Shown here in pieces: positions 32,347 through 47,189 of a stretch of DNA of 64,000 nucleotides. The stretch is taken from contig NZ_FNZR01000002.1 of the NCBI RefSeq assembly GCF_900109365.1, forward strand, positions 310,001-374,000, given 5' to 3'. Below the pieces are notes generated by a model. It was not told the DNA's origin. It ran no database searches and saw only the letters and a list, made by a program, of their open reading frames with translations. The DNA is from Parapedobacter koreensis (lineage in GTDB: Bacteria; Bacteroidota; Bacteroidia; Sphingobacteriales; Sphingobacteriaceae). The stretch's first letter is position 1. Each line of letters starts with the position of its first letter. The position numbers and the translations under genes are program-made.

Positions 32347-32422
32347 GCGAAAGTAGCTCAGTTGGTAGAGCGCAACCTTGCCAAGGTTGAGGTCGCGAGT
32401 TCGAACCTCGTCTTTCGCTCCA
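32347..32422 (+). tRNA. tRNA-Gly(GCC), insertion target of the island
   Basis: Cloverleaf with acceptor GCGAAAG/CTTTCGC, D-stem GCTC/GAGC, anticodon stem CAACC/GGTTG, loop TTGCCAA (anticodon GCC), T-loop TTCGAAC, and an encoded CCA. The last 27 bases belong to the direct repeat that recurs at 47190, so the 3' end here was contributed by the island and the tRNA stays intact. Confidence 0.97.
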
Positions 32423-32458
32423 CAGGAACCCCTTCTAATAATGTTAGAGGGGGTTTTT
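32396..32458 (+). repeat. attL: left copy of the island's direct repeat
   Basis: The repeat starts in the T-arm of tRNA-Gly (CGAGTTCGAACCTCG...) and includes the tRNA terminator. It matches 47190-47252 with one difference (G at 32425, T at 47219), at an offset of 14794 bp. The 29 bp before the mismatch are identical and likely contain the crossover site. Confidence 0.9.
32427..32458 (+). terminator. Terminator of tRNA-Gly
   Basis: Stem AACCCCTTCTAA / TTAGAGGGGGTT with one wobble, loop TAATG, followed by TTTTT. A second copy is carried by the attR repeat. Confidence 0.85.
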
Positions 32459-32481
32459 CGTGTTCGAGGGGTTCGGAAGGG

Positions 32482-32505
32482 AAACTCCCACCAAAACTCC
32501 CACCA
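32482..32505 (+). repeat. Two tandem 12-bp arm-type repeats beside attL
   Basis: AAACTCCCACCA occurs twice head to tail (32482-32493, 32494-32505), followed by a looser copy (GAAACCCCACCG). The same 12-mer recurs inside the right end at 47029-47040. Position and recurrence fit arm-type binding sites for a tyrosine integrase. Confidence 0.65.
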
Positions 32506-32534
32506 GAAACCCCACCGGCACGAGGATAAAAAAG

Positions 32535-33230
32535 ATGGCAAGGACGGTCGAACGCTACAGGGAGCCTAAGATCGTCCGCGCCAAGCGGGGCTGGTTCATC
32601 GCGCTCTATTACCAATGGCCGGAAAACCACCCGGAGAAAAAGGCACCCACAAAAAATTTGAAATTTCCGCAGGGCTGAACCGAATCCAAGACCTCGCCAG
32701 GCGGGAGCGGGAAATGCGGGCATTGCTCGACGAAGTGAAGGATATTCTCGCTAAAGGATTCGATCCGCTCTTTGAAAATGCGGAAACCGACTTCATAGCA
32801 GAAATTAAGGAAAAGAAAGACCACGTTGCCGAAATTCAGCAGGCAGAATTTGAGGTTAAAATTGCTGAATCCCCGCAAAATACCTCCGAAGTTACAGGAA
32901 TCCAAACAGCCGCTAAAGATCAGACAGAACTGCAGGGCTGGACTCTGAAAGAAGGTATTGAACAATACCGGAAATACTGCAAGGGCCGGAACTATTCGGA
33001 GCGCACCATAACCACCTACGACACCTACATTAACAACTTCACCGATTGGCTGGTGGATGCCGAGCTCCTTGACTCCCCATGCAGCAGGTTTGACGAGTTC
33101 AAAGCCAAGGAGTTCCTCGATGAGTATTTCGACGAGGAAGGCTGGTCGCCATGGACATACAACAACCACCTTGATTTCCTATTAACGCTTTTCAACTGCG
33201 TCCTGAAACTGGAAAAAGAGGAAAACAAAC
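32535..33230 (+). pseudogene. Tyrosine-type integrase, frameshifted and truncated
   Basis: Translation from the ATG at 32535 gives an integrase N-terminus (MARTVERYREPKIVRAKRGW, then FIALYYQWPENHPEK) but hits a stop at 32676-32678. A shift in the A-rich stretch near 32637-32660 restores KKFEISAGLNRIQDLARRE and a SAM-like core-binding domain (GRNYSERTITTYDTYINNFTDWL... WSPWTYNNHLDFLLTLFNC) in another frame. The reading then passes into unrelated AT-rich sequence near 33230, so the catalytic domain (R, HxxR, Y) is missing. About 230 of the usual 440 or so codons remain. The island cannot excise with this enzyme. Confidence 0.88.
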
Positions 33231-33299
33231 GAAGTATAAAACCAAATTTTTTAGCAATTAATCTTGCAGGTCTTTTGATTTTTTTATTAATTTGGAGGC

Positions 33300-33455
33300 A
33301 TGAATTTTTTGCTGTTCATATTTGTTGCCATTGTGGTTTTTGTCGCGTCTTATTCCTCTTTGGGAAGTGACCACCCGTATGTTGGGTTAGGCATTGCGGC
33401 GCTTGTGACTTTCTGGTACTTTTTCCATGTTACCAAACCAAAGAGAAAGGCTTGA
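33300..33455 (+). CDS. Small two-helix membrane protein, candidate immunity protein
   Basis: 51 codons. ATG at 33300 follows GGAGG by one base. The protein has two membrane helices (about residues 2-18 and 29-43; FLLFIFVAIVVFVASYSSL and GIAALVTFWYFF) and a basic tail (TKPKRKA). It is the first gene of the island after the dead integrase. No family is recognised. Small membrane proteins often give bacteriocin immunity, but it is 8.4 kb from the precursor, so this is only a suggestion. The clear SD site and clean hydrophobic pattern argue that it is a real gene. Confidence 0.55.
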   Translation: MNFLLFIFVAIVVFVASYSSLGSDHPYVGLGIAALVTFWYFFHVTKPKRKA

Positions 33456-35114: not shown

Positions 35115-35771
35115 ATGGCAAGAAAAATTGAGGGCGAACACCGGAACAAGGAACTCACCAAAAAGAAATTGATCGACAGTGTAGGGGAAGTCCTCCGCAG
35201 GGAAGGATACACCAAACTGGGCGTTAATAACATCGCCAACCACGCAGGTGTAAGTAAAAAACTGATTTACCGGTATTTTGAATCAGTTGACAACCTAATA
35301 GAAGCCTACATCAAGGAAATGGACTTTTGGATGACCCTGCGTTCGCAGGAAGACGAATTGGCGAATATACACAGCCATAACTTTGGAAGGGATCTCGCCT
35401 CGACGTTCCTCGGAAGCCTGTTCGAACACTTGGAAGACAGGCCGGAAGCCCAAAAGATCATCCTATATGAATTGTCTGAGAACAACAAGCTCCTGCATGA
35501 AATCAGTATGGTTCGTGAGATGTTCGGTTCCAAGCTTTTCAAAATGACTGATCCTATTTTTGAGGGGACAGGTATCGACTTGCGGGCAGTTTACGCAATT
35601 TTATTGGGCGGGGTTTACTACATGACGCTCCACGCGAACGGAGCTGGCGGTACGGTCTGCGAAATCGATTCCAAGAAAGACGAAGGAAAGCAGCGTCTCA
35701 TTAAGGCTATGGAAACCATCGTAGAAATGTGTTATAATGAAGCGGAAAGAGTAAAACTGGCTAAACTATAG
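35115..35771 (+). CDS. TetR/AcrR-family regulator, island copy 1
   Basis: 218 residues. N-terminal helix-turn-helix (GYTKLGVNNIANHAGVSKKLIYRYFESVDNLIEAYI) followed by an all-helical ligand domain. It is clearly paralogous to the TetR at the other end of the island: both share NLIEAYI, KIIL-E-SE-N, and a C-terminal IC/VC-x-ID ... CYN segment. It follows the oxoamine synthase in the same direction and may share its transcript. It likely controls the island genes, perhaps through the palindromes described; ligand unknown. Confidence 0.9.
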   Translation: MARKIEGEHRNKELTKKKLIDSVGEVLRREGYTKLGVNNIANHAGVSKKLIYRYFESVDNLIEAYIKEMDFWMTLRSQEDELANIHSHNFGRDLASTFLGSLFEHLEDRPEAQKIILYELSENNKLLHEISMVREMFGSKLFKMTDPIFEGTGIDLRAVYAILLGGVYYMTLHANGAGGTVCEIDSKKDEGKQRLIKAMETIVEMCYNEAERVKLAKL

Positions 35772-36342: not shown

Positions 36343-38520
36343 GTGAAATCGTTTCCATTTTACGAACAGCAAGATCAGATGGATTGTGGGGCGACCTGTC
36401 TGCGAATGATCAGCAAATGTTTTGGTCGTAGCATTGGTATCCAAAGAATCCGTAAGTTGAGTTCTATGACGGATTCAGGGGTAAACATGCTCGGACTTAG
36501 TGAAGCGGCTGAAAAGCTTGGTTTCAGAAGTCTCGGCTTGCGCCTGACAATCGAACAGCTTCCGGAAATTTCGCTTCCTTGCATTCTGCATTGGAAACAG
36601 AACCATTTCGTGATTTTATACCGTATAAAAAACAACAGGTATTTCATTGCCGATCCGGGAATCGGTAAGGTAAACCTATCCGAAAAAGAATTCACGGATA
36701 ATTGGTATCCCGATAATGATCAGCGTTATGGGTTGGTTTTGATTTTATCACCGAGACCGGAGTTTTACAGCCAACAAGGGGATGATGATAACGCAATGAA
36801 ATGGAAGACCATATTGCTATATTTTTATGAGTATCGCAAACTGTTCGTACAATTGATTTTAGGCGTCATTATCGGCAGCTCTCTCCAATTAGTAACACCA
36901 TTTCTGACCCAATCGGTTGTTGATATCGGTATTAACACCAACAACCTGAATTTCATATATTTAGTATTGATTGCACAATTGATGTTGTTTATCGGCCAGT
37001 CATCGATCACATTCATCAGATCTTGGATATTACTTCATATAAGTACCCGTATAAATATTTCGATCCTTACCGACCTACTTATTAAGCTAATGAAGCTCCC
37101 AATGGAATTTTTTAGCACAAAGACAACCGGTGACATTATGCAAAGGATGCAGGATCAAGAAAGAATAGAGACTTTTCTCACAAGTTCGACATTGAACACA
37201 TTATTCTCATTTGTAAACCTGGTAGTTTTCGGAATCGTATTAGCTTTTTATCATTTGGGAATCTTTGTTGTATTCGCTGCCAGCAGTGTGCTTTACACAG
37301 GTTGGATACTTCTTTTCATGAAAAGAAGAAGAGAACTTGATTATCGAAACTTCACGATTGCATCCGATAACCAAACCAATGTTGTTGAGATCGTAAGTAG
37401 TATTCAAGAAATTAAACTGAACAATTTTGAGCGGCAAAAACGTTGGTCGTGGGAGAATATACAAGCCCGGCTTTTCCGTTTCAAGGTTAAGAGTCTTGCC
37501 CTTTCCCAGTACCAAGAATCTGGCGCGATGGCAATAGAGCAATTGAAAAACATATTAATAATCTTTATCAGCGCAAGGGCTGTGATAGATGGTGAATTAT
37601 CTTTGGGTACTATGATGGCCATTCAGTACATCGTAGGGATGGTAAGCAACCCAATACAACAACTGCTCGGCTTCATCCATTACTATCAAGATGCAAAGAT
37701 AAGCCTGGAGCGAATCAACGAAATATATCAGGAGCCGGACGAAGAGCCCGCAGAAAACGATTTGCTTACACAGCTTCCTCATGATAGAAGTATTACATTT
37801 AAGTCGGTCATTTTCCGTTATCCAGGCGCGGGAAACGAACCCGTATTGTCTGACATTGATTTAGTATTTCCAGGCGGGAAGACAACAGCAATCGTCGGCA
37901 TGAGCGGAAGCGGAAAGACTACGGTTTTGAAGCTGATACTCCGGTTTTTTATGCCAGAAAAAGGAGAATTGTATGTTGGCAATATAAAGCAAAAGAACAT
38001 TTCCTTCAGTACATGGAGAAATGACTGCGGCGTTGTAATGCAAGACGGGTTTATTTTCGCAGATACCATTGAGAACAATATTATTGTCGGAAAAGAGCCA
38101 GATAGAGAAAGACTTGAATTGGCACTGAAAATTGCTAACCTCACAGAATTTATTGACGAGCAGCCCTTTGGGCTAAAAACAAGAATTGGTATTGCGGGCA
38201 AGGGCATAAGCCAGGGTCAAAGGCAACGAATTCTGATTGCAAGGGCGGTTTACAAAGATCCCCATTACATAATTTTGGATGAGGCAACAAATTCCTTGGA
38301 TGCCAAAAACGAAAGAATAATCATTGAAAATCTTAAGAATTTTTTTGAAAATAGAACGGTTATTATAGTCGCCCATCGGCTAAGCACCGTAAGCTATGCG
38401 GACAATATCGTTGTATTAAGCAACGGAAGGGTAATTGAACAGGGAACACACCAAGATTTGGTCAATAAGCGAGGTCAATACTATAATCTTGTAAGAAATC
38501 AACTGGAATTAGGAAACTGA
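36343..38520 (+). CDS. Peptidase-containing ABC exporter (C39 protease, PCAT) for double-glycine peptides
   Basis: 725 residues from a GTG start; an in-frame TAA lies just upstream. The C39 peptidase domain (residues 1-130) has catalytic C15 in QMDCGATC, H88 in WKQNHFVIL and D104 in IADPGIG, so it is active-type. A six-helix ABC membrane domain (about 165-440) precedes the nucleotide-binding domain: Walker A GMSGSGKTT (near 520), signature ISQGQRQRILIARAV (near 622), Walker B YIILDEATNSLD and H-loop AHRLS. It should cut the leader after Gly-Gly and export the peptide across the inner membrane. The adaptor gene follows after 6 bp, and the double-glycine precursor is 3.4 kb downstream. Confidence 0.95.
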   Translation: MKSFPFYEQQDQMDCGATCLRMISKCFGRSIGIQRIRKLSSMTDSGVNMLGLSEAAEKLGFRSLGLRLTIEQLPEISLPCILHWKQNHFVILYRIKNNRYFIADPGIGKVNLSEKEFTDNWYPDNDQRYGLVLILSPRPEFYSQQGDDDNAMKWKTILLYFYEYRKLFVQLILGVIIGSSLQLVTPFLTQSVVDIGINTNNLNFIYLVLIAQLMLFIGQSSITFIRSWILLHISTRINISILTDLLIKLMKLPMEFFSTKTTGDIMQRMQDQERIETFLTSSTLNTLFSFVNLVVFGIVLAFYHLGIFVVFAASSVLYTGWILLFMKRRRELDYRNFTIASDNQTNVVEIVSSIQEIKLNNFERQKRWSWENIQARLFRFKVKSLALSQYQESGAMAIEQLKNILIIFISARAVIDGELSLGTMMAIQYIVGMVSNPIQQLLGFIHYYQDAKISLERINEIYQEPDEEPAENDLLTQLPHDRSITFKSVIFRYPGAGNEPVLSDIDLVFPGGKTTAIVGMSGSGKTTVLKLILRFFMPEKGELYVGNIKQKNISFSTWRNDCGVVMQDGFIFADTIENNIIVGKEPDRERLELALKIANLTEFIDEQPFGLKTRIGIAGKGISQGQRQRILIARAVYKDPHYIILDEATNSLDAKNERIIIENLKNFFENRTVIIVAHRLSTVSYADNIVVLSNGRVIEQGTHQDLVNKRGQYYNLVRNQLELGN

Positions 38521-38526
38521 CTTGCG

Positions 38527-39804
38527 ATGAAAAATCAATCATATCAAAAACATAGCGAGGCCATCCAGGAAATAATCGGAAAACCGCCATCCACATTGTT
38601 AAAATCTGGCACAACAATAGTTTTATTGGGTCTATTGCTAATCCTCGGACTATCAGCCATAATTAGGTATCCGGATATCATTCGAACGGAAATTAGAATA
38701 AACTCGTCTAACTCCCCTAAGCCGGTGGTAAATAGGATATCCGGAAATATTGTGAGAATCCTCTTTCCCGAAAACGAAAAGGTGGACGCCGGCCAACCAT
38801 TGGCTTGGTTGGAAAGCACTGCGGATCATAACCAAGTTCTGGAATTATCCAAACAACTTTACGAATTGAGAATCGCTACCAATTCAGGGGAACCTCTCTC
38901 ATCGGTAGGGTTTATACCACCAACGGAAGGAAGTTTGGGCGAGCTTCAAGAAGAATTCCAGGTTTTCTACCAATCTTACCTTTCCTATAAGGCGGCAACT
39001 GAAGGGGGGATATATTTAAGGCAGAGAACCTACATTAACAGAGATCTGGAAAACATAAAAACACAACAACTTCATTTAGAAAAGAGACTACAATTATATA
39101 GTGAAGAATTGAAATTAGCGGAGGAAGACTTTGAACGATACAAAGTCCTTGCCGAAAAAAAAGTCATATCCCCTTCCGAATATCAACAAAAGCAAAGCAT
39201 ACTGATTTCGAAACAATACCCACTTCAAGAAACACGTTCGGCAATTCTTTCAAACGAGTCCTCGTATACCTCGAAGATTCGGGAATTATCGGATTTGGAA
39301 AATACAATACAAGAAGAAAAATCTAAATTTATACAGGCTCTCAATAGTCTAATAAGTGCAACTGAACAATGGAAAAGCCAATATTTATTGACTGCCAGGC
39401 AGCAAGGCAGGGTTAGCTATGCCGGAATAATTCAGGAAAACCAACACATAGATCAAGGACAAACCGTGTTTTATATAAATCCAGGTAACACGGACTACTT
39501 TGGGGAAGCAGTGATTCCTCAATATAATATGGGGAAGGTTAGGGAAAACCAAAAAGTACATATTAAACTTCTTAGTTTCCCATTTGAGGAATATGGTATT
39601 ATTAAAGGAACAGTGGGACAGGTAAGTTCTGTACCACATCAAGACAGTCTATTTATCTCAAAAATAATTCTGGACCCCGTACCTACAAAACGGCCCGTTC
39701 AGTTGCGCACTGGATTGAAGGGGACGGCAGAAATCATTACTGAGGATGCTTCTTTATTAATGCGGCTTATCAGAAATTTAAAGCTGATAGCAAATCAAAA
39801 TTAA
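38527..39804 (+). CDS. HlyD-family adaptor of the peptide exporter
   Basis: 425 residues. One N-terminal membrane helix (residues 28-47), a split lipoyl domain (VNRISGNIVRILFPENEKVDAGQPLAWLES and ARQQGRVSYAGIIQENQHIDQGQTVFYI) and a long coiled-coil hairpin between them (about residues 160-270). It should connect the exporter to an outer-membrane TolC channel encoded elsewhere (the TolC at 5908-7263 is one candidate). It is cotranscribed with the exporter (6-bp gap). Confidence 0.93.
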   Translation: MKNQSYQKHSEAIQEIIGKPPSTLLKSGTTIVLLGLLLILGLSAIIRYPDIIRTEIRINSSNSPKPVVNRISGNIVRILFPENEKVDAGQPLAWLESTADHNQVLELSKQLYELRIATNSGEPLSSVGFIPPTEGSLGELQEEFQVFYQSYLSYKAATEGGIYLRQRTYINRDLENIKTQQLHLEKRLQLYSEELKLAEEDFERYKVLAEKKVISPSEYQQKQSILISKQYPLQETRSAILSNESSYTSKIRELSDLENTIQEEKSKFIQALNSLISATEQWKSQYLLTARQQGRVSYAGIIQENQHIDQGQTVFYINPGNTDYFGEAVIPQYNMGKVRENQKVHIKLLSFPFEEYGIIKGTVGQVSSVPHQDSLFISKIILDPVPTKRPVQLRTGLKGTAEIITEDASLLMRLIRNLKLIANQN

Positions 39805-39967: not shown

Positions 39968-41608
39968 ATGATAAACCTATTTAAGAAATCGACCATTTCC
40001 AGCGAAGAAAACATTAACAGTGTAGTATTAATATATTCGCAAATTCTCGAATTGCCCATCAGTAAAGAGGGATTAAGAAAAGCTATCGATGAGCATCCGG
40101 ATTACCCAAGCATGCTTGCGGTATACGATGTCTTTGCAAAGTTTGGGGCGAATGTCTATGCTGCGCAAATCGATGGCGATAAACTGAAGGAAATCAAACA
40201 GCCGTTTATTGCACAAATTGAATCTCCTAACACTTTCTATGAAATATTTACAGTTGTCAAAAATCTTGATGACAAGAAAGTTTGTTATTACGATCCGGAA
40301 AAAACCCTTTGGATAGAGACAGAAACCACATCATTCTTAGAAATATACAAAGGTGTTGGCTTAGTTGTCAATGGGGAGACTGTAACACCGGAAGCCGATT
40401 ATGAAAATAAACGCCGATCTGAAAAAAATAACGCGATAAGGGCTTGGGCTTCCATATTATCCTTTCCTCTGCTTTTTATAGTCATTGTCTTGTTCTATTG
40501 GATATTTCAAGGTGCAATTAACTATTGGTTTACGTTATATTCGTTGCTGTCATTTGCGGGGGCGATTATCTGCTGCCTTTTGATCTGGTTTGAAATAGAC
40601 AGCCATTCGCCCTTGTTAATGAGGGTATGCTCTGGAAAGCGGTCAAATTGTAATGCCATCCTAAACTCGGAAGCATCTAAGGTATTTGGCGTTAGCTGGA
40701 GCGCCATCGGGTTTACATTCTTTACCAGCCAATTGTTGACTTTTGTTTTTTCTTCTTTTGACATGGATATCTCCTGGTCAATGGGATGGCTTGGGCTATT
40801 AGGCACTCCTTATATAGTTTTTTCCATTTACTACCAATGGCGTGTAGCAAGGCAATGGTGCCCCTTATGCCTTTCCATACAAGCTGTTTTAGCCTTGCAA
40901 GCTATTATATTTATTGTCGCGGGTGGCTTGGCCACAAACCCAATTACTGCGCTTGCTGCAAATGATATTATTATCATTGTTTCTATATTTCTCCTGGTAT
41001 TTTTATTGGCGTATTGGGGTGTGCCGACATTAAGAACAGCCAAGGAAGCGGGGCATTTTAAGAACAATTTCCAGCGCCTCAAACACAATGGCGAAGTTTT
41101 CAATTCTCTACTAATGCGCCAGAAAGGCTTTAGCGGGGATATAGAAGGATTGGGGATAACTTTGGGAAAGCCGGATTCGCAAAATAAAATAATCAAAGTG
41201 TGCAGTCCTTATTGCGATCCCTGCGCCAAAGCACATCCCTCAATAGATGAGATATTAAGGTTAAATCCAGATGTGCAAGTGCAGATTGTTTTTACGTCGC
41301 GAAACAGTGAAAGGGACTACAAAGCTGTTCCGGTTAAGCATTTCATGGCAATTGCATCAAGAAACGACGAAGAGTTAACAAGAAGCGCATTACATTATTG
41401 GTATACCTCACCATCAAAAAATTATACAGAATTTGCCTCAAAATACCCTGTAAGTGATACGGATCTACAAGAGCAGGGCAAAAAATTGGATGAAATGTGG
41501 CTCTGGTGCAATCATGCAGGCATTTTGTATACACCGACTTTCTTCTTTAACGGACAACAACTGCCAGATATATATGATATTGACGATCTAAAATATATGC
41601 TAACCTAA
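39968..41608 (+). CDS. C39-like / vitamin K epoxide reductase / thioredoxin fusion (disulfide-forming enzyme)
   Basis: 546 residues in three parts. Residues 1-140 resemble a C39 peptidase without the catalytic Cys (HPDYPSMLAVYDVFAKFG, KQPFIAQIESPNTFYEIF), which may bind leader peptides. Residues about 155-345 form a VKOR membrane domain with the loop pair CSGKRSNC and the active CPLC. Residues about 365-546 form a thioredoxin-like domain with CSPYCDPC, facing the periplasm. VKOR moves electrons to quinones and oxidises the thioredoxin, which then makes disulfides. Next to a six-Cys peptide this is the likely disulfide catalyst. Confidence 0.92.
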   Translation: MINLFKKSTISSEENINSVVLIYSQILELPISKEGLRKAIDEHPDYPSMLAVYDVFAKFGANVYAAQIDGDKLKEIKQPFIAQIESPNTFYEIFTVVKNLDDKKVCYYDPEKTLWIETETTSFLEIYKGVGLVVNGETVTPEADYENKRRSEKNNAIRAWASILSFPLLFIVIVLFYWIFQGAINYWFTLYSLLSFAGAIICCLLIWFEIDSHSPLLMRVCSGKRSNCNAILNSEASKVFGVSWSAIGFTFFTSQLLTFVFSSFDMDISWSMGWLGLLGTPYIVFSIYYQWRVARQWCPLCLSIQAVLALQAIIFIVAGGLATNPITALAANDIIIIVSIFLLVFLLAYWGVPTLRTAKEAGHFKNNFQRLKHNGEVFNSLLMRQKGFSGDIEGLGITLGKPDSQNKIIKVCSPYCDPCAKAHPSIDEILRLNPDVQVQIVFTSRNSERDYKAVPVKHFMAIASRNDEELTRSALHYWYTSPSKNYTEFASKYPVSDTDLQEQGKKLDEMWLWCNHAGILYTPTFFFNGQQLPDIYDIDDLKYMLT

Positions 41609-41718: not shown

Positions 41719-41750
41719 TTTGCACCTAACTATTAATCTCTATATATTTG
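41719..41750 (+). promoter_or_regulatory. Promoter of the bacteriocin-like precursor gene
   Basis: TTTG (41719-41722), a 20-nt spacer and TATATTTG (41743-41750) match the Bacteroidota -33/-7 elements. Transcription would start near 41757. Confidence 0.75.
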
Positions 41751-41901: not shown

Positions 41902-42075
41902 ATGCAAAGAGGAACTTTCAATTTCGGAAATGTTGGGCAGGTTTTGTCCAGAGATGAGTTACGTCAAATCAGCGGTGGTTATACGCCAACCTGTGTTTAT
42001 CGGTGCAACTATAAATGCAAATGCGAAAGAGCGGAAGATTGGTGCGTGAATGGATATTGCGACCAGCGGTGGTAA
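41902..42075 (+). CDS. Double-glycine leader precursor peptide with a six-cysteine core (candidate RiPP/bacteriocin)
   Basis: 57 codons. Residues 1-26 form a leader ending LSRDELRQISGG, the pattern of Bacteroidota double-glycine leaders; cleavage after G26 leaves a 31-residue core. The core has six Cys at core positions 5, 9, 13, 15, 22 and 27 (CX3CX3CXCX6CX4C), four Tyr, two Trp and a net charge near +1, and ends in Trp. It has only two Thr and no Ser, so lanthionine formation is unlikely and disulfides are favoured. Nearby C39 exporter, VKOR-thioredoxin and TlpA genes fit a disulfide-rich secreted peptide; the glycosyltransferase suggests possible glycosylation. A promoter lies upstream and a terminator downstream. 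A longer overlapping frame (41864-42049) has no such features. Confidence 0.85.
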   Translation: MQRGTFNFGNVGQVLSRDELRQISGGYTPTCVYRCNYKCKCERAEDWCVNGYCDQRW

Positions 42076-42171
42076 AACAAATAGAGTTGTATATGGCTTT
42101 TCAAAAACAATAAGGCCATTTATTGTTTTTGGAATACATTTTTCGCCATATTTAAGTTATGGTCGAAACAC

Positions 42172-42207
42172 AAAATAGATGGATTTGCTGTATCCATCTA
42201 TTTTTTC
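42172..42207 (+). terminator. Terminator after the precursor gene
   Basis: A perfect 13-bp stem (AAAATAGATGGAT at 42172-42184, ATCCATCTATTTT at 42192-42204), loop of seven, then a T run. It separates the precursor from the TlpA-like gene and would allow a short, abundant precursor mRNA. Confidence 0.85.
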
Positions 42208-42219
42208 ATTTTAGTTATT

Positions 42220-43335
42220 ATGAAGTTAATATTTATCGGATTATTTCTATTGTCCTTTTCTTCCGTAATCTGCCAGAATAGAAATTCCCTGCCATACAAG
42301 ATCTATGGGAGTGTGAACGTTGATTCAGGTTCCGTGGCACTCGTGCCTGTGGCAAACGAAAATTTGTATCCAGAATCTTTTAAAACGCTTGAAACAACGA
42401 TTAATAACGGAAGGTTTGAGTTTGCCGGTGAAATACCGTTTCCCCTCGGATATTACATTATTATTGATGAAATTTATATGTCTGACCTTGTTGTGGTTTA
42501 TGATGGTGACCAGCGTTACGAAATTAACATTGAAAACAATAGACAAGTCCCCCAAGTAGAAGGCCGTTTTAGCCAAGAATTTCGCACTTATAATGAGTAT
42601 TTCAAGGAAACCCTAAAGGCAAGGGAAAGTTATTACCGTTTGAGGGACAGCCTTGAATCAAAAGGGGAACTATCAAAAGACCAACAGGAAATGTTAAATT
42701 CCATGCTGGAAAAAAGTTACCAAATGCACGATTCAACACTATTGAAGTTTACAACCGATCATCCTTCTTCATTCCTTGGTTTGTGGAAGTTCGCCCAACT
42801 TACCAAATTCGGTTACCAACCGATTTTCGAAGATATAATGAATTCCCTTGACAAGAATGTCCAGAGTACATATGCTGGCAAACATTTGAATGAATCCTTG
42901 ATTTCTGCAAGAAGAACCAGTGTGGGCAGCTCCATGCCTCCTATTAACGCCAATAATATGGAAGGCAAGCCTCTGGAAAAAGATTATTTTAGTATGCACA
43001 GGTATACACTCATTGATTTTTGGTATGAGTCCTGTGCTCCCTGCATAGCGCAATTTCCTTATCTCAAAGAATTGTATGAGAAATATCAATCCCAGGGCTT
43101 TAACATTATTGGAATTTCCACGGACAGAACTGAGCAGCGCAGCCAATTGTTAGAAAGGATCAAAGAGCAAAACCTTCCTTGGCCACAATATTGGGATGAA
43201 AACGGACTGGCGGCTAATGAATTAGGCATTCATGCTTACCCATCTTCTTTTTTGGTTGATAATGACGGTAATATCGTACTGGTAAACGTTAGGCATGTGG
43301 CATTAGCAGAGTTCCTCCAAAAGACGTTAGAATGA
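42220..43335 (+). CDS. TlpA-like thiol-disulfide oxidoreductase with N-terminal DUF4369-like domain
   Basis: 371 residues. A signal peptide (LIFIGLFLLSFSSVICQ) exports it. A beta-rich domain (residues 25-115) resembling DUF4369, a helical linker (120-215) and a thioredoxin fold (from about 235) follow; the active site is WYESCAPCIAQFP (CAPC) and the cis-Pro loop is HAYPSSFLVD. It acts in the periplasm, reducing or isomerising disulfides. Together with the VKOR fusion it gives an oxidase and a possible isomerase for the six-Cys peptide. Confidence 0.92.
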   Translation: MKLIFIGLFLLSFSSVICQNRNSLPYKIYGSVNVDSGSVALVPVANENLYPESFKTLETTINNGRFEFAGEIPFPLGYYIIIDEIYMSDLVVVYDGDQRYEINIENNRQVPQVEGRFSQEFRTYNEYFKETLKARESYYRLRDSLESKGELSKDQQEMLNSMLEKSYQMHDSTLLKFTTDHPSSFLGLWKFAQLTKFGYQPIFEDIMNSLDKNVQSTYAGKHLNESLISARRTSVGSSMPPINANNMEGKPLEKDYFSMHRYTLIDFWYESCAPCIAQFPYLKELYEKYQSQGFNIIGISTDRTEQRSQLLERIKEQNLPWPQYWDENGLAANELGIHAYPSSFLVDNDGNIVLVNVRHVALAEFLQKTLE

Positions 43336-43464: not shown

Positions 43465-44523
43465 ATGAAAAAAGACCATCTTAAAATATCCTTTTGCACG
43501 GTGAGCATGAATAGATTGGATCACCTGAAAGCAACAATGGCAAGAAACATCGAAGATAATATTTCATATCCCAACCTTGAATTCGTTTTATTAAATTATA
43601 ATTCCTCTGACGATATCGACAGATGGGTTTTGGATAATCTTAGTCAATATCTTGATTCTGCAATATTAAAATATTACAAGACGACAGCATCTGAACATTT
43701 CAAGCGTAGTCATTCCCGGAATATGGCTTTTAAATTGGCTTCCGGAGATATTCTTTGCAATGTTGACGCAGATAATTTCCTCGGCTCTGAATTCGCGTTT
43801 TTCATAAATGAAACTTTCCAATCAAATGAAAACATCTTTATGGTTCCGGTCTTCACAAAAAGAGATTTTATGGGCAGGGTGTGCATACGAAAGGAAGACT
43901 TTGAATCAATGAATGGGTTTGATGAATCAATGCAAGGATATGGATTTGAAGACCTTGAACTATATGGACGGCTCAAAGCTGAAGGTTTCGTCCAATTTGA
44001 ATATGACGATCCCTCCTATTTAAATTTTATTTCTCATTCGCACATCGACAGATTCAACAATGATTACATCGGGAAAAATCTGGATTCGATACTAATTTCA
44101 TACATTCATCCAAATGAGACAAAAGCGGTCTACCTATTTAAAGATTCTAATTATGAAGAGGTTCACTTATTGGATGATGAATCAGTCGATTCGGATGGGT
44201 TGATCGAATTCAAGTCTGCCCCAACATTCGGAAAGTGGGTTGTAGATGGGAAAGGAATTCATCTGGAAAACAAAAAAGAAGGCAAGCGAATTTTGGGATT
44301 TTGTGAACATGTTGCAGTATTTCATTGTGATCAGGATAGACAAATATACTATATGGTTGACGACCAAGCTCTAAATCACAGCCTGATCCTAATTAAAACC
44401 GAAGTCGAAAACAGAAAAAAATACGAAAGGCATAAAAAAGGCGAAAAACTGGACATTCAAATCAACCCCCAGGGCTTCGGGCTTGGAGATGCAAATCGGA
44501 TACACAGCCGCAAAATTTATTAA
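43465..44523 (+). CDS. Family 2 (GT-A) glycosyltransferase
   Basis: 352 residues, no membrane segment. The GT-A core spans residues 5-190: ISFCTVSMNRLDHLKATM, FVLLNYNSSDDI, the metal motif in ILCNVDADNF, and a C-terminal catalytic block FDESMQGYGFEDLELYGRL as in the galactosyltransferase C-domain. The last 150 residues are a separate region I do not recognise. Being soluble and inside a RiPP-like locus, it could glycosylate the precursor on Cys or Thr, as SunS-type enzymes do in glycocins; this is inference. The next gene starts 12 bp later. Confidence 0.88.
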   Translation: MKKDHLKISFCTVSMNRLDHLKATMARNIEDNISYPNLEFVLLNYNSSDDIDRWVLDNLSQYLDSAILKYYKTTASEHFKRSHSRNMAFKLASGDILCNVDADNFLGSEFAFFINETFQSNENIFMVPVFTKRDFMGRVCIRKEDFESMNGFDESMQGYGFEDLELYGRLKAEGFVQFEYDDPSYLNFISHSHIDRFNNDYIGKNLDSILISYIHPNETKAVYLFKDSNYEEVHLLDDESVDSDGLIEFKSAPTFGKWVVDGKGIHLENKKEGKRILGFCEHVAVFHCDQDRQIYYMVDDQALNHSLILIKTEVENRKKYERHKKGEKLDIQINPQGFGLGDANRIHSRKIY

Positions 44524-44535
44524 AACCTTTAGATA

Positions 44536-45396
44536 ATGGAGCAACTTGCTACATCCGGCAAAGAATACATCGGTATTAAAATACATTACTCGAAGTCGAG
44601 CCAATCCAAGTTGATAACCGAGTGTATTCAAAAAATACTCTCGGAACATGAAAAAGACATTAATTATTCCCTGGTTTACATTTCAAATTTCAAAGGTGAA
44701 CAACTAAAATTGGTCATTTGCGTGAAAGCAATTTCCCTGGGTAGTATATATCAACAGTTTCATTCTTCATTGCAGGAATTTTTGAAACAAAACCCTTCCC
44801 CCGCTCCCCGAAACAATTTTATTCCAGGGAAAGACCTTTGGATGCATTATTCGAACAATTCTTTCCTTTGTGAAGTCTTAACCAGCTTTCCAGAGGATTG
44901 GTATACTGATTATTGCATAGCGATCAGTAAGGTTATGATCTACGATTCGTTACCATTTGTCAACGATGATGAAAACACGATTGCCGAAGCGATGCTATTG
45001 CATTTTTGCCTTTGCAGTGTTTTTCCTGATGAACTCTGCCGTAAAATCTACTCGTTTCTATTTTCGTATTATGAAGGTGCTACCGAAGCCAACATTGAAC
45101 ACGAGTTCTATTTTCGGTTAAAAGAAAATGCAAATTCTTTTGTACAACAAAACCGGGGACAATTGGACAATTATAGGGACAATGAAACTATTGAGGGGAA
45201 TTTCGGAGAATTCAGGGATTTAGCAAACAAAATTTTATTAGGTAATAGTGATGAAAAGGTCATATTCAGCAGATATTTACAACTTCAGGAGCTCTTACAA
45301 AATCACTATGGAATCGAGCCTATGGTTTGGCTATATCTTCTCAACATCATGAAATCATATTTCAACGAACGCTCCACCGAAAAAATCATATCGTAA
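44536..45396 (+). CDS. Uncharacterised RiPP-locus protein, possibly SpaB_C-like
   Basis: 286 residues, soluble. The order of features faintly matches the SpaB_C / thiopeptide-type biosynthesis domain of lantibiotic dehydratases: an N-terminal ferredoxin-like segment (YIGIKIHYSK, then EQLKLVICVK), helices, and IYDSLPFV near residue 140 in place of the usual aDS motif. No glutamylation domain is present here or nearby, so a dehydratase is not expected. It follows the glycosyltransferase by 12 bp and probably works with it. The family assignment is uncertain. Its 3' end overlaps the convergent gene by 11 bp. Confidence 0.6.
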   Translation: MEQLATSGKEYIGIKIHYSKSSQSKLITECIQKILSEHEKDINYSLVYISNFKGEQLKLVICVKAISLGSIYQQFHSSLQEFLKQNPSPAPRNNFIPGKDLWMHYSNNSFLCEVLTSFPEDWYTDYCIAISKVMIYDSLPFVNDDENTIAEAMLLHFCLCSVFPDELCRKIYSFLFSYYEGATEANIEHEFYFRLKENANSFVQQNRGQLDNYRDNETIEGNFGEFRDLANKILLGNSDEKVIFSRYLQLQELLQNHYGIEPMVWLYLLNIMKSYFNERSTEKIIS

Positions 45397-45937: not shown

Positions 45938-46612
45938 CTACTCTCCTATTGTATTATAGCAAAGATTTATCACTTGTTCGAATGCCCTTAGCACACGTTC
46001 CTCTCCTACATTTTCGTTGATATCAATGCCACATATCGTACTTCCATTATTTGTAGCATGAATAGGAAGATAATACGCACCACCTATTAATAGCGATACA
46101 ATGGCAGGAAGATCCACTTTTTCACTTATTAGTTTGGGATGCACAAATTGCACCAATTTATCAGAAATTTTATCTCGTTCAGACGCTATCTTTTGCATCA
46201 AAGCATTGCTTTCGCTAATCTCCCAAAGAATTATTTTTTGTAATTCTGGATTCTTAAAAACGGCTTTAAATTGATTTTTCAACAACATCAAAAGATCTTC
46301 TTGTCCTGTGTTCTTTTTCTCAAGAATTGATTCTATGCTGTTTTTTGCATCGAATTGCCAATAATCCTTTCCAAGAATATACGCCTCAATCAAATTCTCC
46401 GCATTTCCGAAGTAAAGATAAACAAGCTTGCGGTTTACTTTTGCTTCCTTGGCAATATTGGATACAGTTAAACCGGTATATCCCTTTCGATTTAACACTT
46501 TACCTACCGCCATAATCAATTTACTCATGGTACGTGCTTTGGACTTTACCGGGCCATTGGTTACTTTCCTTTCCTTGGCTTTAGTGTTACCAGTGGGATC
46601 TTTTCTTTTCAT
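45938..46612 (-). CDS. TetR/AcrR-family regulator, island copy 2
   Basis: 224 residues from the ATG at 46612 (an in-frame start at 46663 gives 241). After a basic N-terminal tail (KRKDPTGNTKAKERKV) comes a helix-turn-helix (GYTGLTVSNIAKEAKVNRKLVYLYFGNAENLIEAYI) and a helical ligand domain. It is a paralogue of the TetR at 35115: shared KIIL-E-SE-N, a C-terminal ICGID and CYN. It closes the right side of the island cargo. It may respond to a signal different from that of copy 1. Confidence 0.9.
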   Translation of the reverse strand: MKRKDPTGNTKAKERKVTNGPVKSKARTMSKLIMAVGKVLNRKGYTGLTVSNIAKEAKVNRKLVYLYFGNAENLIEAYILGKDYWQFDAKNSIESILEKKNTGQEDLLMLLKNQFKAVFKNPELQKIILWEISESNALMQKIASERDKISDKLVQFVHPKLISEKVDLPAIVSLLIGGAYYLPIHATNNGSTICGIDINENVGEERVLRAFEQVINLCYNTIGE

Positions 46613-47189
46613 TTCGCTTGATATATATTGGGAAAGAGTCTGGTTTCCTTTGCAGAAATCCAAAACAAGTATGGACGATTTATCAAAAACTGATCCGAAC
46701 CTGCTGGTTTAGTACAGCTTGCCCAAATGTACGTCATTCCATTGGATCGATCAATAAAACCTTGCAAATGTATAATTTATATTATATTTCAGTTAGGCTA
46801 ACTTACCGAATCCAAGAATAAGCTGTTTAAAAGTTCCCATAACCAATTCTTAAAGTCTTATTTATTAACTCATAATTTTATACATATTTGCATCTATAAA
46901 AGCGTATAAATTCTTATATTTATATCTATTAATCACAATCATTTTAATGAATATCATCGGGGCTTTACTCTGTTTTTTTAGATTGTATTATAATTTAACA
47001 CACTGACAACATGGATAAGTACTAACCAAAACTCCCACCAAAATTTGACAATTAGAGAATTTTTCGTTTTGGAAACTAAACCAGAAAAAAATCGCTTAGA
47101 ACATGACCTAAAAATGGCCATTTAAGCATTCTGAAAAAGACTCACCTGTTTCAACTAATCAACAAGGCAATTTAAAAAACGAAAATTTC
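46613..47189. other. AT-rich right end of the island without supported genes
   Basis: About 580 bp. Apart from the TetR promoter region and the arm-type repeat at 47029-47040 nothing is recognisable; short frames (for example 19 codons at 46947) are not supported. Confidence 0.5.
47029..47040 (+). repeat. Arm-type repeat near attR
   Basis: AAACTCCCACCA, the same 12-mer as the tandem pair beside attL, in the same orientation and about 150 bp inside the right repeat. Confidence 0.6.

What the first reader, a model, noticed from the sequence alone, without database searches (positions are those of the whole stretch)
41902..42075. Unannotated double-glycine precursor with a six-Cys core, probable product of a new RiPP/bacteriocin system
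A 57-codon gene encodes a leader ending LSRDELRQISGG and a 31-residue core with Cys spacing CX3CX3CXCX6CX4C. It has its own TTTG-N20-TATATTTG promoter and a 13-bp terminator. It is short enough to be missed by gene callers, and a longer overlapping frame hides it. The locus encodes a C39 exporter, adaptor, two thiol enzymes, a GT2 and an unknown protein. I know of no characterised peptide with this Cys pattern.
Basis: partly seen in the sequence, partly recalled or inferred. Interest (0 to 1): 0.93.

Follow-up and report, generated by a model that had tools for sequence, protein, structure and literature searches.

The report
Six-cysteine peptide with paired tailoring enzymes
The window holds a real gene for a small secreted peptide with three likely disulfide bonds, one of a large family made by Bacteroidota, and beside it sits an odd enzyme pair (a sugar transferase and a relative of an antibiotic-making enzyme) whose presence goes with a tyrosine at the very start of the mature peptide.

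Summary
The ORF is real and in the right frame: 57 codons, 26-residue leader ending GG, 31-residue core, Cys spacing as stated. A leader profile built without the window ranks it first of 1,449 frames (E 8.5e-6). It is one of a large family: 43 of 60 relatives of the neighbouring C39-like/VKOR/thioredoxin gene have such a precursor downstream on the same strand, 0 antisense; 42 of 59 precursors have exactly six Cys, 56 an even number.

The 'unknown protein' is a stand-alone relative of the LanB elimination domain / thiopeptide pyridine synthase. It recurs beside this GT2 (56 of 80 named loci) and is fused to glycosyltransferases twice. No LanB or LanC was found in this genome, so a lanthipeptide is unlikely.

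New here: with the GT2 + LanB_C-like pair present, the core starts with Tyr in 17 of 24 precursors, without it in 9 of 101 (noticed post hoc). Best explanation: a three-disulfide GG peptide, exported, oxidised in the envelope, and tailored, probably glycosylated, by the pair. It works like a bacteroidetocin with a glycocin-like step; a new variant of a known kind. Product, sugar and activity are unproven.

The parts
36343..38520 (+). peptidase C39 ABC exporter, catalytic QMDCG and Walker A present (GTG start)
   Evidence: Pfam Peptidase_C39 3.4e-34, ABC_membrane, ABC_tran; motifs
38527..39804 (+). HlyD-family adaptor of the exporter
   Evidence: Pfam HlyD_3 1.7e-11; TIGR01843 3.6e-25, below its cut-off
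39968..41608 (+). C39-like (non-catalytic) + VKOR + thioredoxin fusion, a likely peptide-thiol oxidase; CPLC and CDPC motifs
   Evidence: Pfam VKOR 1.3e-14, Peptidase_C39 6.9e-8, Thioredoxin_4 5.4e-5; no D[C/S]G motif in the N-terminal 110 residues of 60 of 60 relatives, at least two CxxC in 60 of 60; window N-terminus likewise
41719..41750 (+). Bacteroidota-type promoter-like motif TTTG-N20-TATATTTG
   Evidence: not shared by the family
41902..42075 (+). precursor peptide: leader 41902-41979 (26 aa, ends GG), core 41980-42072 (31 aa, six Cys, Tyr at position 1)
42099..42134 (+). 16-bp RNA hairpin just after the precursor; strong hairpins there in 40 of 49 loci
42172..42204 (+). 13-bp intrinsic-terminator-like stem with T tract
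42220..43335 (+). DUF4369-like (just under cut-off) + AhpC/TSA, TlpA-like thiol-disulfide protein, CAPC motif, N-terminus that reads like a signal peptide
43465..44523 (+). GT-A glycosyltransferase (GT2/GT7C type), DAD motif at residues 101-103
   Evidence: Pfam Glyco_tranf_2_2 5e-11, Glyco_transf_7C 1.2e-8; conserved residues; model pLDDT 93.7, mannosyltransferase / GalNAc-T / chondroitin synthase neighbours
   Evidence: 10 of 27 family members match PF14028 at E <= 1, best 1.5e-8; leave-one-out E 1.2e-26 to its family; model pLDDT 89.7; Foldseek ranks 1-21 all LanB/pyridine-synthase type

Best explanation
A seven-gene operon makes a secreted, disulfide-locked and probably glycosylated small peptide. 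Steps: (1) the 57-aa precursor is translated; the hairpin and terminator behind it probably let it be made in excess of the downstream enzymes (inferred; that a strong hairpin follows most family precursors is shown). (2) In the cytosol the GT2, working with the stand-alone LanB_C/TbtD-like protein as substrate-binding or catalytic partner, modifies the N-terminal end of the core; Tyr1 is the leading candidate acceptor, Thr2 and Thr4 next (inferred from the pair's co-occurrence with Tyr1). (3) The C39-ABC/HlyD exporter cuts after GG and exports the core (inferred from intact family motifs). (4) The C39-like/VKOR/thioredoxin fusion, its dead C39 domain perhaps gripping the GG leader, and the TlpA-like protein form three disulfides in the envelope (inferred from the nearly always even Cys count and from the redox motifs). 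(5) The product acts outside the cell, most likely as a narrow bacteriocin against related Bacteroidota (weakest step; no immunity gene was recognised among the operon genes).
For: Precursor frame and start: leader profile without the window E 8.5e-6; leader length 26 aa as in 19 of 59 precursors, the window included. Linkage: 43 of 60 relatives plus the window have a GG precursor downstream of the VKOR fusion, 43 of these 44 within 300 nt; 3 of 61 upstream, 0 of 61 antisense on either side, 0 in shuffles. Disulfides: 42 of 59 cores with six Cys, 56 of 59 even; two or more CxxC in 60 of 60 VKOR relatives. Pair: LanB_C-like gene in 56 of 80 GT2 loci; fusions L098 (GT2 + LanB_C-like) and L052 (Lant_dehydr_C + GT11 + GT7C); fold. 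Tyr1: 17 of 24 with the pair (16 of 23 without the window) against 9 of 101 without it, Fisher 1.5e-9; without the Flavobacteriaceae and Bacteroidales rows and the phylum-wide set 9 of 13 against 7 of 84, p 4e-6; position 1 only, 71% against 9%.
Against: No expression, mass or activity data. The Tyr1 association was noticed on part of the same data, and the sets fetched afterwards (0 of 14, 2 of 17) test only the 'without' side; 7 of 24 paired precursors lack Tyr1; related sequences are not independent, and in the Flavobacteriaceae rows leader type and Tyr1 cannot be separated. For the 56 'without' rows that come from 5.7-kb stretches, absence of the GT2 rests on the genome search (GT2 only in G316 and G241 of those genomes, on other contigs), not on the stretch itself. 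24 of 80 GT2 loci show no LanB_C-like gene (some end at a contig end). 17 of 60 VKOR relatives show no precursor by the pattern used. Most VKOR-linked loci do without the pair, so it is not needed for the basic peptide. Sugar donor and acceptor are unknown.
Confidence: 0.6

Rival explanations
1. Plain disulfide peptide of the bacteroidetocin kind (GG leader, C39 exporter, thiol oxidoreductase, no other modification); the GT2 and LanB_C-like protein act on another molecule, such as a cell-surface glycan or a second peptide.
For: GT2 (E <= 1e-20) in 30 of 400 genomes against VKOR fusion (E <= 1e-30) in 148 of 390, so most such loci lack it. Bacteroidetocin loci have GG leader, C39-type ABC transporter and thiol oxidoreductase (PMC6671954 passages).
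Against: GT2 and LanB_C-like genes follow the precursor on the same strand and recur with C39 exporters (52 of 80); a LanB_C/TbtD fold is a peptide-modifying fold; Tyr1 association.
Confidence: 0.22
2. Same biosynthesis, but the product is a signalling peptide rather than an antimicrobial.
For: Some precursors match the ComC model weakly (4 of 59, best E 0.016); no immunity gene recognised among the operon genes; two TetR regulators flank the operon.
Against: 13 of 59 match the Bacteriocin_IIc model weakly (best E 0.0014); no receptor or histidine kinase among the operon genes; the diversity of cores between genomes is more typical of arms-race peptides (inference).
Confidence: 0.13
3. Class I lanthipeptide or thiopeptide-like product made with the LanB_C-like protein.
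For: The protein has the LanB_C/pyridine-synthase fold; 11 of 80 GT2 loci carry LanB-type dehydratase sequence and 12 LanC.
Against: No Lant_dehydr_N in this genome while two control genomes give 10 and 6 matched stretches; no LanC; core has no Ser and two Thr; Arg in 0 of 55 rows at the column matching NisB R786 (residue role recalled).
Confidence: 0.03
4. The ORF is a chance frame; the overlapping 41864 frame or no protein is the real product.
For: No close orthologue: best match to the whole peptide outside its own genome has E 8.9e-4 in 400 genomes, hardly better than the rival frame's 1.2e-3 in 96.
Against: Leader profile, position, six Cys, hairpin; the rival frame matches no family, and 4 of its 7 outside matches contain stops.
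Confidence: 0.02

Closest known systems
Bacteroidetocins (class IIf bacteriocins proposed in PMC6671954)
   Same: GG leader, Cys-rich core, C39-type ABC transporter and thiol oxidoreductase in one cluster, Bacteroidota
   Different: Those have 15-16 aa leaders, 42-48 aa cores and four Cys; the four-gene clusters in the passages seen have no GT2 or LanB_C-like protein; no direct sequence comparison was made here
Glycocins, notably three-disulfide glycocin-F-like thermoglycocin/orniglycocin (PMC12457901)
   Same: Leader cut by a C39 ABC transporter, dedicated glycosyltransferase, thioredoxin-like proteins, several disulfides (abstract, passages and section 17)
   Different: Known ones have five Cys, the new ones seven or eight, with sugar on Cys/Ser; here six Cys; the 50 listed structure rows for the window GT2 hold no S-glycosyltransferase entry; extra LanB_C-like partner; glycocins are reported from Bacillota (PMC9576775 passage)
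Stand-alone LanB elimination-domain proteins in class I lanthipeptide clusters (PMC7268733, section 8)
   Same: Same fold family; stand-alone; the paper suggests a reaction other than elimination
   Different: There beside full LanB and often fused to PCMT methyltransferases; here beside or fused to glycosyltransferases, and in 69 of 80 GT2 loci no LanB sequence was seen in the stretch held
Thiopeptide pyridine synthases TbtD / PbtD
   Same: Closest solved fold, TM-score 0.72 by query length
   Different: Their [4+2] reaction needs dehydrated Ser (recalled); the core has no Ser and no LanB was found in the genome
NCBIfam TIGR04149 / NF047798 Bacteroidota GG leaders
   Same: Leader family; many relatives match
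   Different: Window peptide below both cut-offs; no radical SAM gene in the operon although TIGR04149 is named for it

Membership tests
VKOR-fusion-linked Bacteroidota GG six-Cys precursors (family defined here) | GG leader ORF directly downstream of the C39-like/VKOR/Trx gene, same strand | tested here: met
   294 nt downstream in the window; 43 of 60 relatives likewise, all but one within 300 nt
VKOR-fusion-linked Bacteroidota GG six-Cys precursors (family defined here) | even number of core Cys, mostly six | tested here: met
   six; 56 of 59 even, 42 of 59 six
NCBIfam TIGR04149 rSAM-modified RiPP | score above curated cut-off 25 bits | tested here: not met
   18.9 bits, E 0.001
NCBIfam TIGR04149 rSAM-modified RiPP | radical SAM enzyme in the cluster | tested here: not met
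   none among the operon proteins or the two flanking TetR genes
Bacteroidetocin (class IIf) | four Cys at similar places, 42-48 aa core, 15-16 aa leader | tested here: not met
   six Cys, 31 aa, 26-aa leader against PMC6671954 passages
Glycocin | precursor with C39-type leader, C39 ABC transporter and glycosyltransferase | tested here: met
Glycocin | glycosyltransferase of the SunS/GccA type | tested here: inconclusive
   no such entry in the 50 rows listed, of 271 structure matches with E <= 0.001; no direct comparison made
Glycocin | sugar actually attached to Cys/Ser/Thr of the core | not testable with these tools
   needs mass spectrometry
Class I lanthipeptide | LanB dehydratase with Lant_dehydr_N | tested here: not met
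   0 in own genome; controls G218 and G271 ring
Class I lanthipeptide | LanC cyclase | tested here: not met
   0 in own genome; the control rang in 1 of 14 genomes
LanB_C / SpaB_C (PF14028) superfamily, for 44536-45396 | fold and profile relationship | tested here: met
   10 of 27 family members hit PF14028; hhalign to LanB C-termini E 9e-6 but probability only 83%; Foldseek; the window protein alone has no Pfam hit
LanB_C glutamate-eliminating enzymes | elimination arginines (NisB R786, R826; recalled) | tested here: not met
   R786 column: Arg in 0 of 55; probable R826 column: Arg in 3 of 55; window has Val and Leu; the second alignment is less sure

The most novel reading that the evidence does not exclude
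The GT2 and the stand-alone LanB_C/TbtD-fold protein form a dedicated two-component enzyme that modifies the first residue of the core, O-glycosylating Tyr1 of GG-leader disulfide peptides (with the pyridine-synthase fold recycled as a leader-gripping or catalytic subunit): a new RiPP tailoring module spread over Bacteroidota.
Probability: 0.3. Interest if true: 0.8.

Novelty: new variant of a known kind. Interest (0 to 1): 0.6.

Why it matters
It gives a function-linked handle on stand-alone LanB elimination-domain proteins, which PMC7268733 noted in class I clusters and left open: here they pair with a glycosyltransferase, mostly without a dehydratase nearby, and a sequence signature (Tyr1) points to the site of action. 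It also defines a large GG-peptide family of Bacteroidota with a nearly always even Cys count, from which the window's peptide can be made and tested. If the Tyr1 prediction holds, it would add tyrosine O-glycosylation by a partnered GT2 to a RiPP field where it is rare (cacaoidin is the example found, PMC8068269 passages).

Tried and rejected
Lanthipeptide or thiopeptide reading: rejected (no LanB or LanC found, no Ser in core). Radical-SAM RiPP (TIGR04149 name): no such gene in the operon. Overlapping frame 41864: no family; 4 of 7 weak matches in other genomes contain stops; but plain pairwise search does not favour 41902 either, so the case rests on profile, position, Cys count and hairpin. 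Own promoter as a family trait: not supported (1 of 49). Sequence search of the LanB_C-like profile against solved structures gave only weak matches to unrelated proteins (best E 1.8e-4, a designed protein); the fold search settled it. The first strict leader pattern found precursors in only 9 of 80 named loci, so a leader profile was used afterwards. In one search precursors with fewer than three Cys were dropped and identical sequences counted once; L133, seen with the strict pattern and starting with Tyr, was missed by the profile and is not counted. L055 entered the LanB_C-like profile as a spurious match (it reads like a transposase) and was left out of the alignments. The 60 relatives are the top of the capped list, leaving out the window itself, one partial match and one already held. 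The first check of the fused C39-like domain looked only from the start of each aligned stretch; I repeated it from the start of the open frame with the same result. The synonymous-bias test could not be made: no close orthologue. Papers: passages only, except the abstract and section 17 of PMC12457901 and section 8 of PMC7268733. The ten library searches, several with cut listings, listed no paper whose title or abstract start describes this GT2 + LanB_C-like pair in GG disulfide-peptide loci; that is not proof of absence.

Full report
WHAT IS THERE. The ORF at 41902-42075 is as described: a 26-residue leader ending in GG and a 31-residue core with six Cys in the spacing 3-3-1-6-4. It is the only leader-pattern ORF in the window; 100 shuffled windows gave 5 such ORFs in all, none with six Cys. 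A leader profile built from 58 relatives without the window ranks its frame first of 1,449 stop-to-stop frames, E 8.5e-6, the next at E 1.3. The operon on the + strand is C39-ABC exporter, HlyD adaptor, C39-like/VKOR/thioredoxin fusion, precursor, TlpA-like protein, GT2, and the 'unknown' 286-aa protein. The G+C of the operon is 38.5% against 48.9% to the left, with a tRNA-Gly at 32347-32422 and an ORF that looks like a cut tyrosine recombinase beside it (from reading the translation; not tested), so the operon was probably acquired.

A FAMILY, NOT A SINGLETON. The whole peptide has no close orthologue: best match outside its own genome E 8.9e-4 in 400 genomes of the order. But the neighbouring VKOR fusion occurs in 148 of 390 genomes at E <= 1e-30. 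Of 60 of those places fetched, 43 have a GG-leader precursor within 1.6 kb downstream on the same strand; with the window 44 of 61, and 43 of the 44 within 300 nt. Upstream: 3 of 61. Antisense: 0 of 61 on either side. Shuffled: 0. The search did not ask for Cys, yet of 59 distinct precursors (49 with the window, 10) 42 have exactly six Cys and 56 an even number; the odd ones have 1, 5 and 7. No other shares the window's spacing, but spacings differ between nearly all members. A strong hairpin (-12 kcal/mol or better in 45 nt) lies within 110 nt after the precursor in 40 of 49 loci, against 4% of shuffles. The promoter motif is found only in the window (1 of 49). NCBIfam leader models NF047798 and TIGR04149 match 53 and 41 of 59 at E <= 1; the window peptide is under both cut-offs.

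THE OXIDASE. The window's fused C39-like domain lacks the catalytic Cys motif, as do 60 of 60 relatives in the first 110 residues of the open frame, while at least two CxxC motifs are present in 60 of 60. This fits a domain that holds the GG leader, without cutting it, next to a disulfide-forming VKOR/thioredoxin pair (inference).

THE 'UNKNOWN PROTEIN'. The window protein has no Pfam or NCBIfam hit alone. Of 27 family members, 10 match PF14028 Lant_dehydr_C (best 1.5e-8) and 6 the TbtD/PbtD pyridine-synthase model (best 2.9e-6) at E <= 1. A profile without the window protein finds it at E 1.2e-26 (search size set to 20,000). Profile comparison with LanB C-terminal domains gives E 9e-6 over 191 columns with probability 83%, and with a smaller alignment E 9e-5, 59%: suggestive, not decisive. 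The AlphaFold2 model (pLDDT 89.7) is: TbtD, a [4+2] aza-cyclase, PbtD, MadB, TsrL, NisB and MibB fill ranks 1-21; from rank 22 on E is 0.086 or worse. At the column of NisB R786 (second Arg of HIRLR, position read; its role recalled from the literature) Arg is found in 0 of 55 rows; at the likely R826 column in 3 of 55. So it has the fold without the glutamate-elimination residues. No LanB was found in the genome (control genomes give 10 and 6 matched stretches) and no LanC, and the core has no Ser, so neither lanthionine nor pyridine formation fits.

THE PAIR. A scan of the genome collection with the GT2 alignment returned 80 named loci (the best of 111 confirmed): LanB_C-like gene in 56, C39 exporter in 52, HlyD 40, VKOR fusion 18, LanB-type dehydratase sequence (whole or split) 11, LanC 12, TlpA-like 8; stretches are cut at contig ends, so these are lower bounds. 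Two fusions join this fold to glycosyltransferases: L098 (GT2 + LanB_C-like) and L052 (Lant_dehydr_C + GT11 + GT7C). In the GT2 alignment of 56 sequences D103 is invariant and D101 is kept in 90% or more; its model (pLDDT 93.7) resembles mannosyltransferase PcManGT, polypeptide GalNAc-transferases and chondroitin synthases.

THE TYROSINE SIGNATURE. Precursors (three or more Cys) in loci with GT2 and LanB_C-like gene within 10 kb and no LanB within 12 kb start with Tyr right after GG in 17 of 24 (15 of 19 loci); those without the pair in 9 of 101 (7 of 73 loci); Fisher 1.5e-9. In loci with LanB 0 of 3; with GT2 alone 0 of 1. Leaving out the rows of Flavobacteriaceae and Bacteroidales and the phylum-wide set: 9 of 13 against 7 of 84, p 4e-6. 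The excess is at position 1 alone (71% against 9%). In L140 the precursor next to the pair begins with Tyr, and the two next to a second VKOR fusion with Ser (all three are counted in the paired class). Cautions: I noticed this on part of the same data; the sets fetched afterwards (0 of 14; 2 of 17) test only the side without the pair; for the 56 rows from 5.7-kb stretches the absence of the GT2 rests; sequences are related, and in Flavobacteriaceae leader type and Tyr1 go together.

MECHANISM AND COMPARISON. I propose a GG-leader, three-disulfide peptide, tailored by the pair in the cytosol, cut and exported by C39-ABC/HlyD, and oxidised by the VKOR fusion and TlpA-like protein. It works like a bacteroidetocin (PMC6671954, passages) with a glycocin-like sugar step (PMC12457901, abstract, passages and section 17), but it is not a member of the first by Cys number and leader, and membership of the second awaits chemistry. 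Characterised glycocins have five Cys and the newer ones seven or eight; six here suggests an O-linked rather than S-linked sugar (inference). PMC7268733 section 8 already reports stand-alone LanB elimination-domain proteins of unknown reaction in class I clusters, and cacaoidin (PMC8068269, passages) gives a precedent for O-glycosyl tyrosine in a RiPP. What I did not find in print are the pairing with GT2 outside lanthipeptide clusters, the size and Cys parity of the precursor family, and the Tyr1 signature (searches named in Tried and rejected). The host family is Sphingobacteriaceae by inference: genome G146, of the same family, has a contig of the length of one of Pedobacter duraquae.

Noticed in passing
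32347-33370: tRNA-Gly followed by what reads like a truncated tyrosine recombinase; with the low G+C of about 36-50 kb this suggests an integrated island.
   Followed up: partly
35115-35771 and 45938-46663 (-): Two TetR-family regulators flank the operon, one on either side.
   Followed up: no
L052:6540-8981 (-): One protein joins a Lant_dehydr_C domain, a GT11 glycosyltransferase and a GT7C domain.
   Followed up: partly
L098:9606-11291: GT2 and LanB_C-like protein fused in one frame, next to two Tyr1 precursors with four and five Cys.
   Followed up: partly
L119: A same-genus genome carries five different GG six-Cys precursors within about 8 kb.
   Followed up: no
L152, L159, L163, L170, L200, L145: The GT2, in 4 of these 6 with the LanB_C-like gene, also occurs in Bacteroidales records (Bacteroides, Parabacteroides, Tannerella and others), an order where LanB is reported absent (PMC10352776 passages).
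   Followed up: no
L201-L203: Relatives of the GT2 without LanB_C-like partner in records labelled Alphaproteobacteria MAGs.
   Followed up: no
42099-42134 and relatives: A strong hairpin follows the precursor in 40 of 49 loci; possibly an attenuator or mRNA stabiliser.
   Followed up: partly
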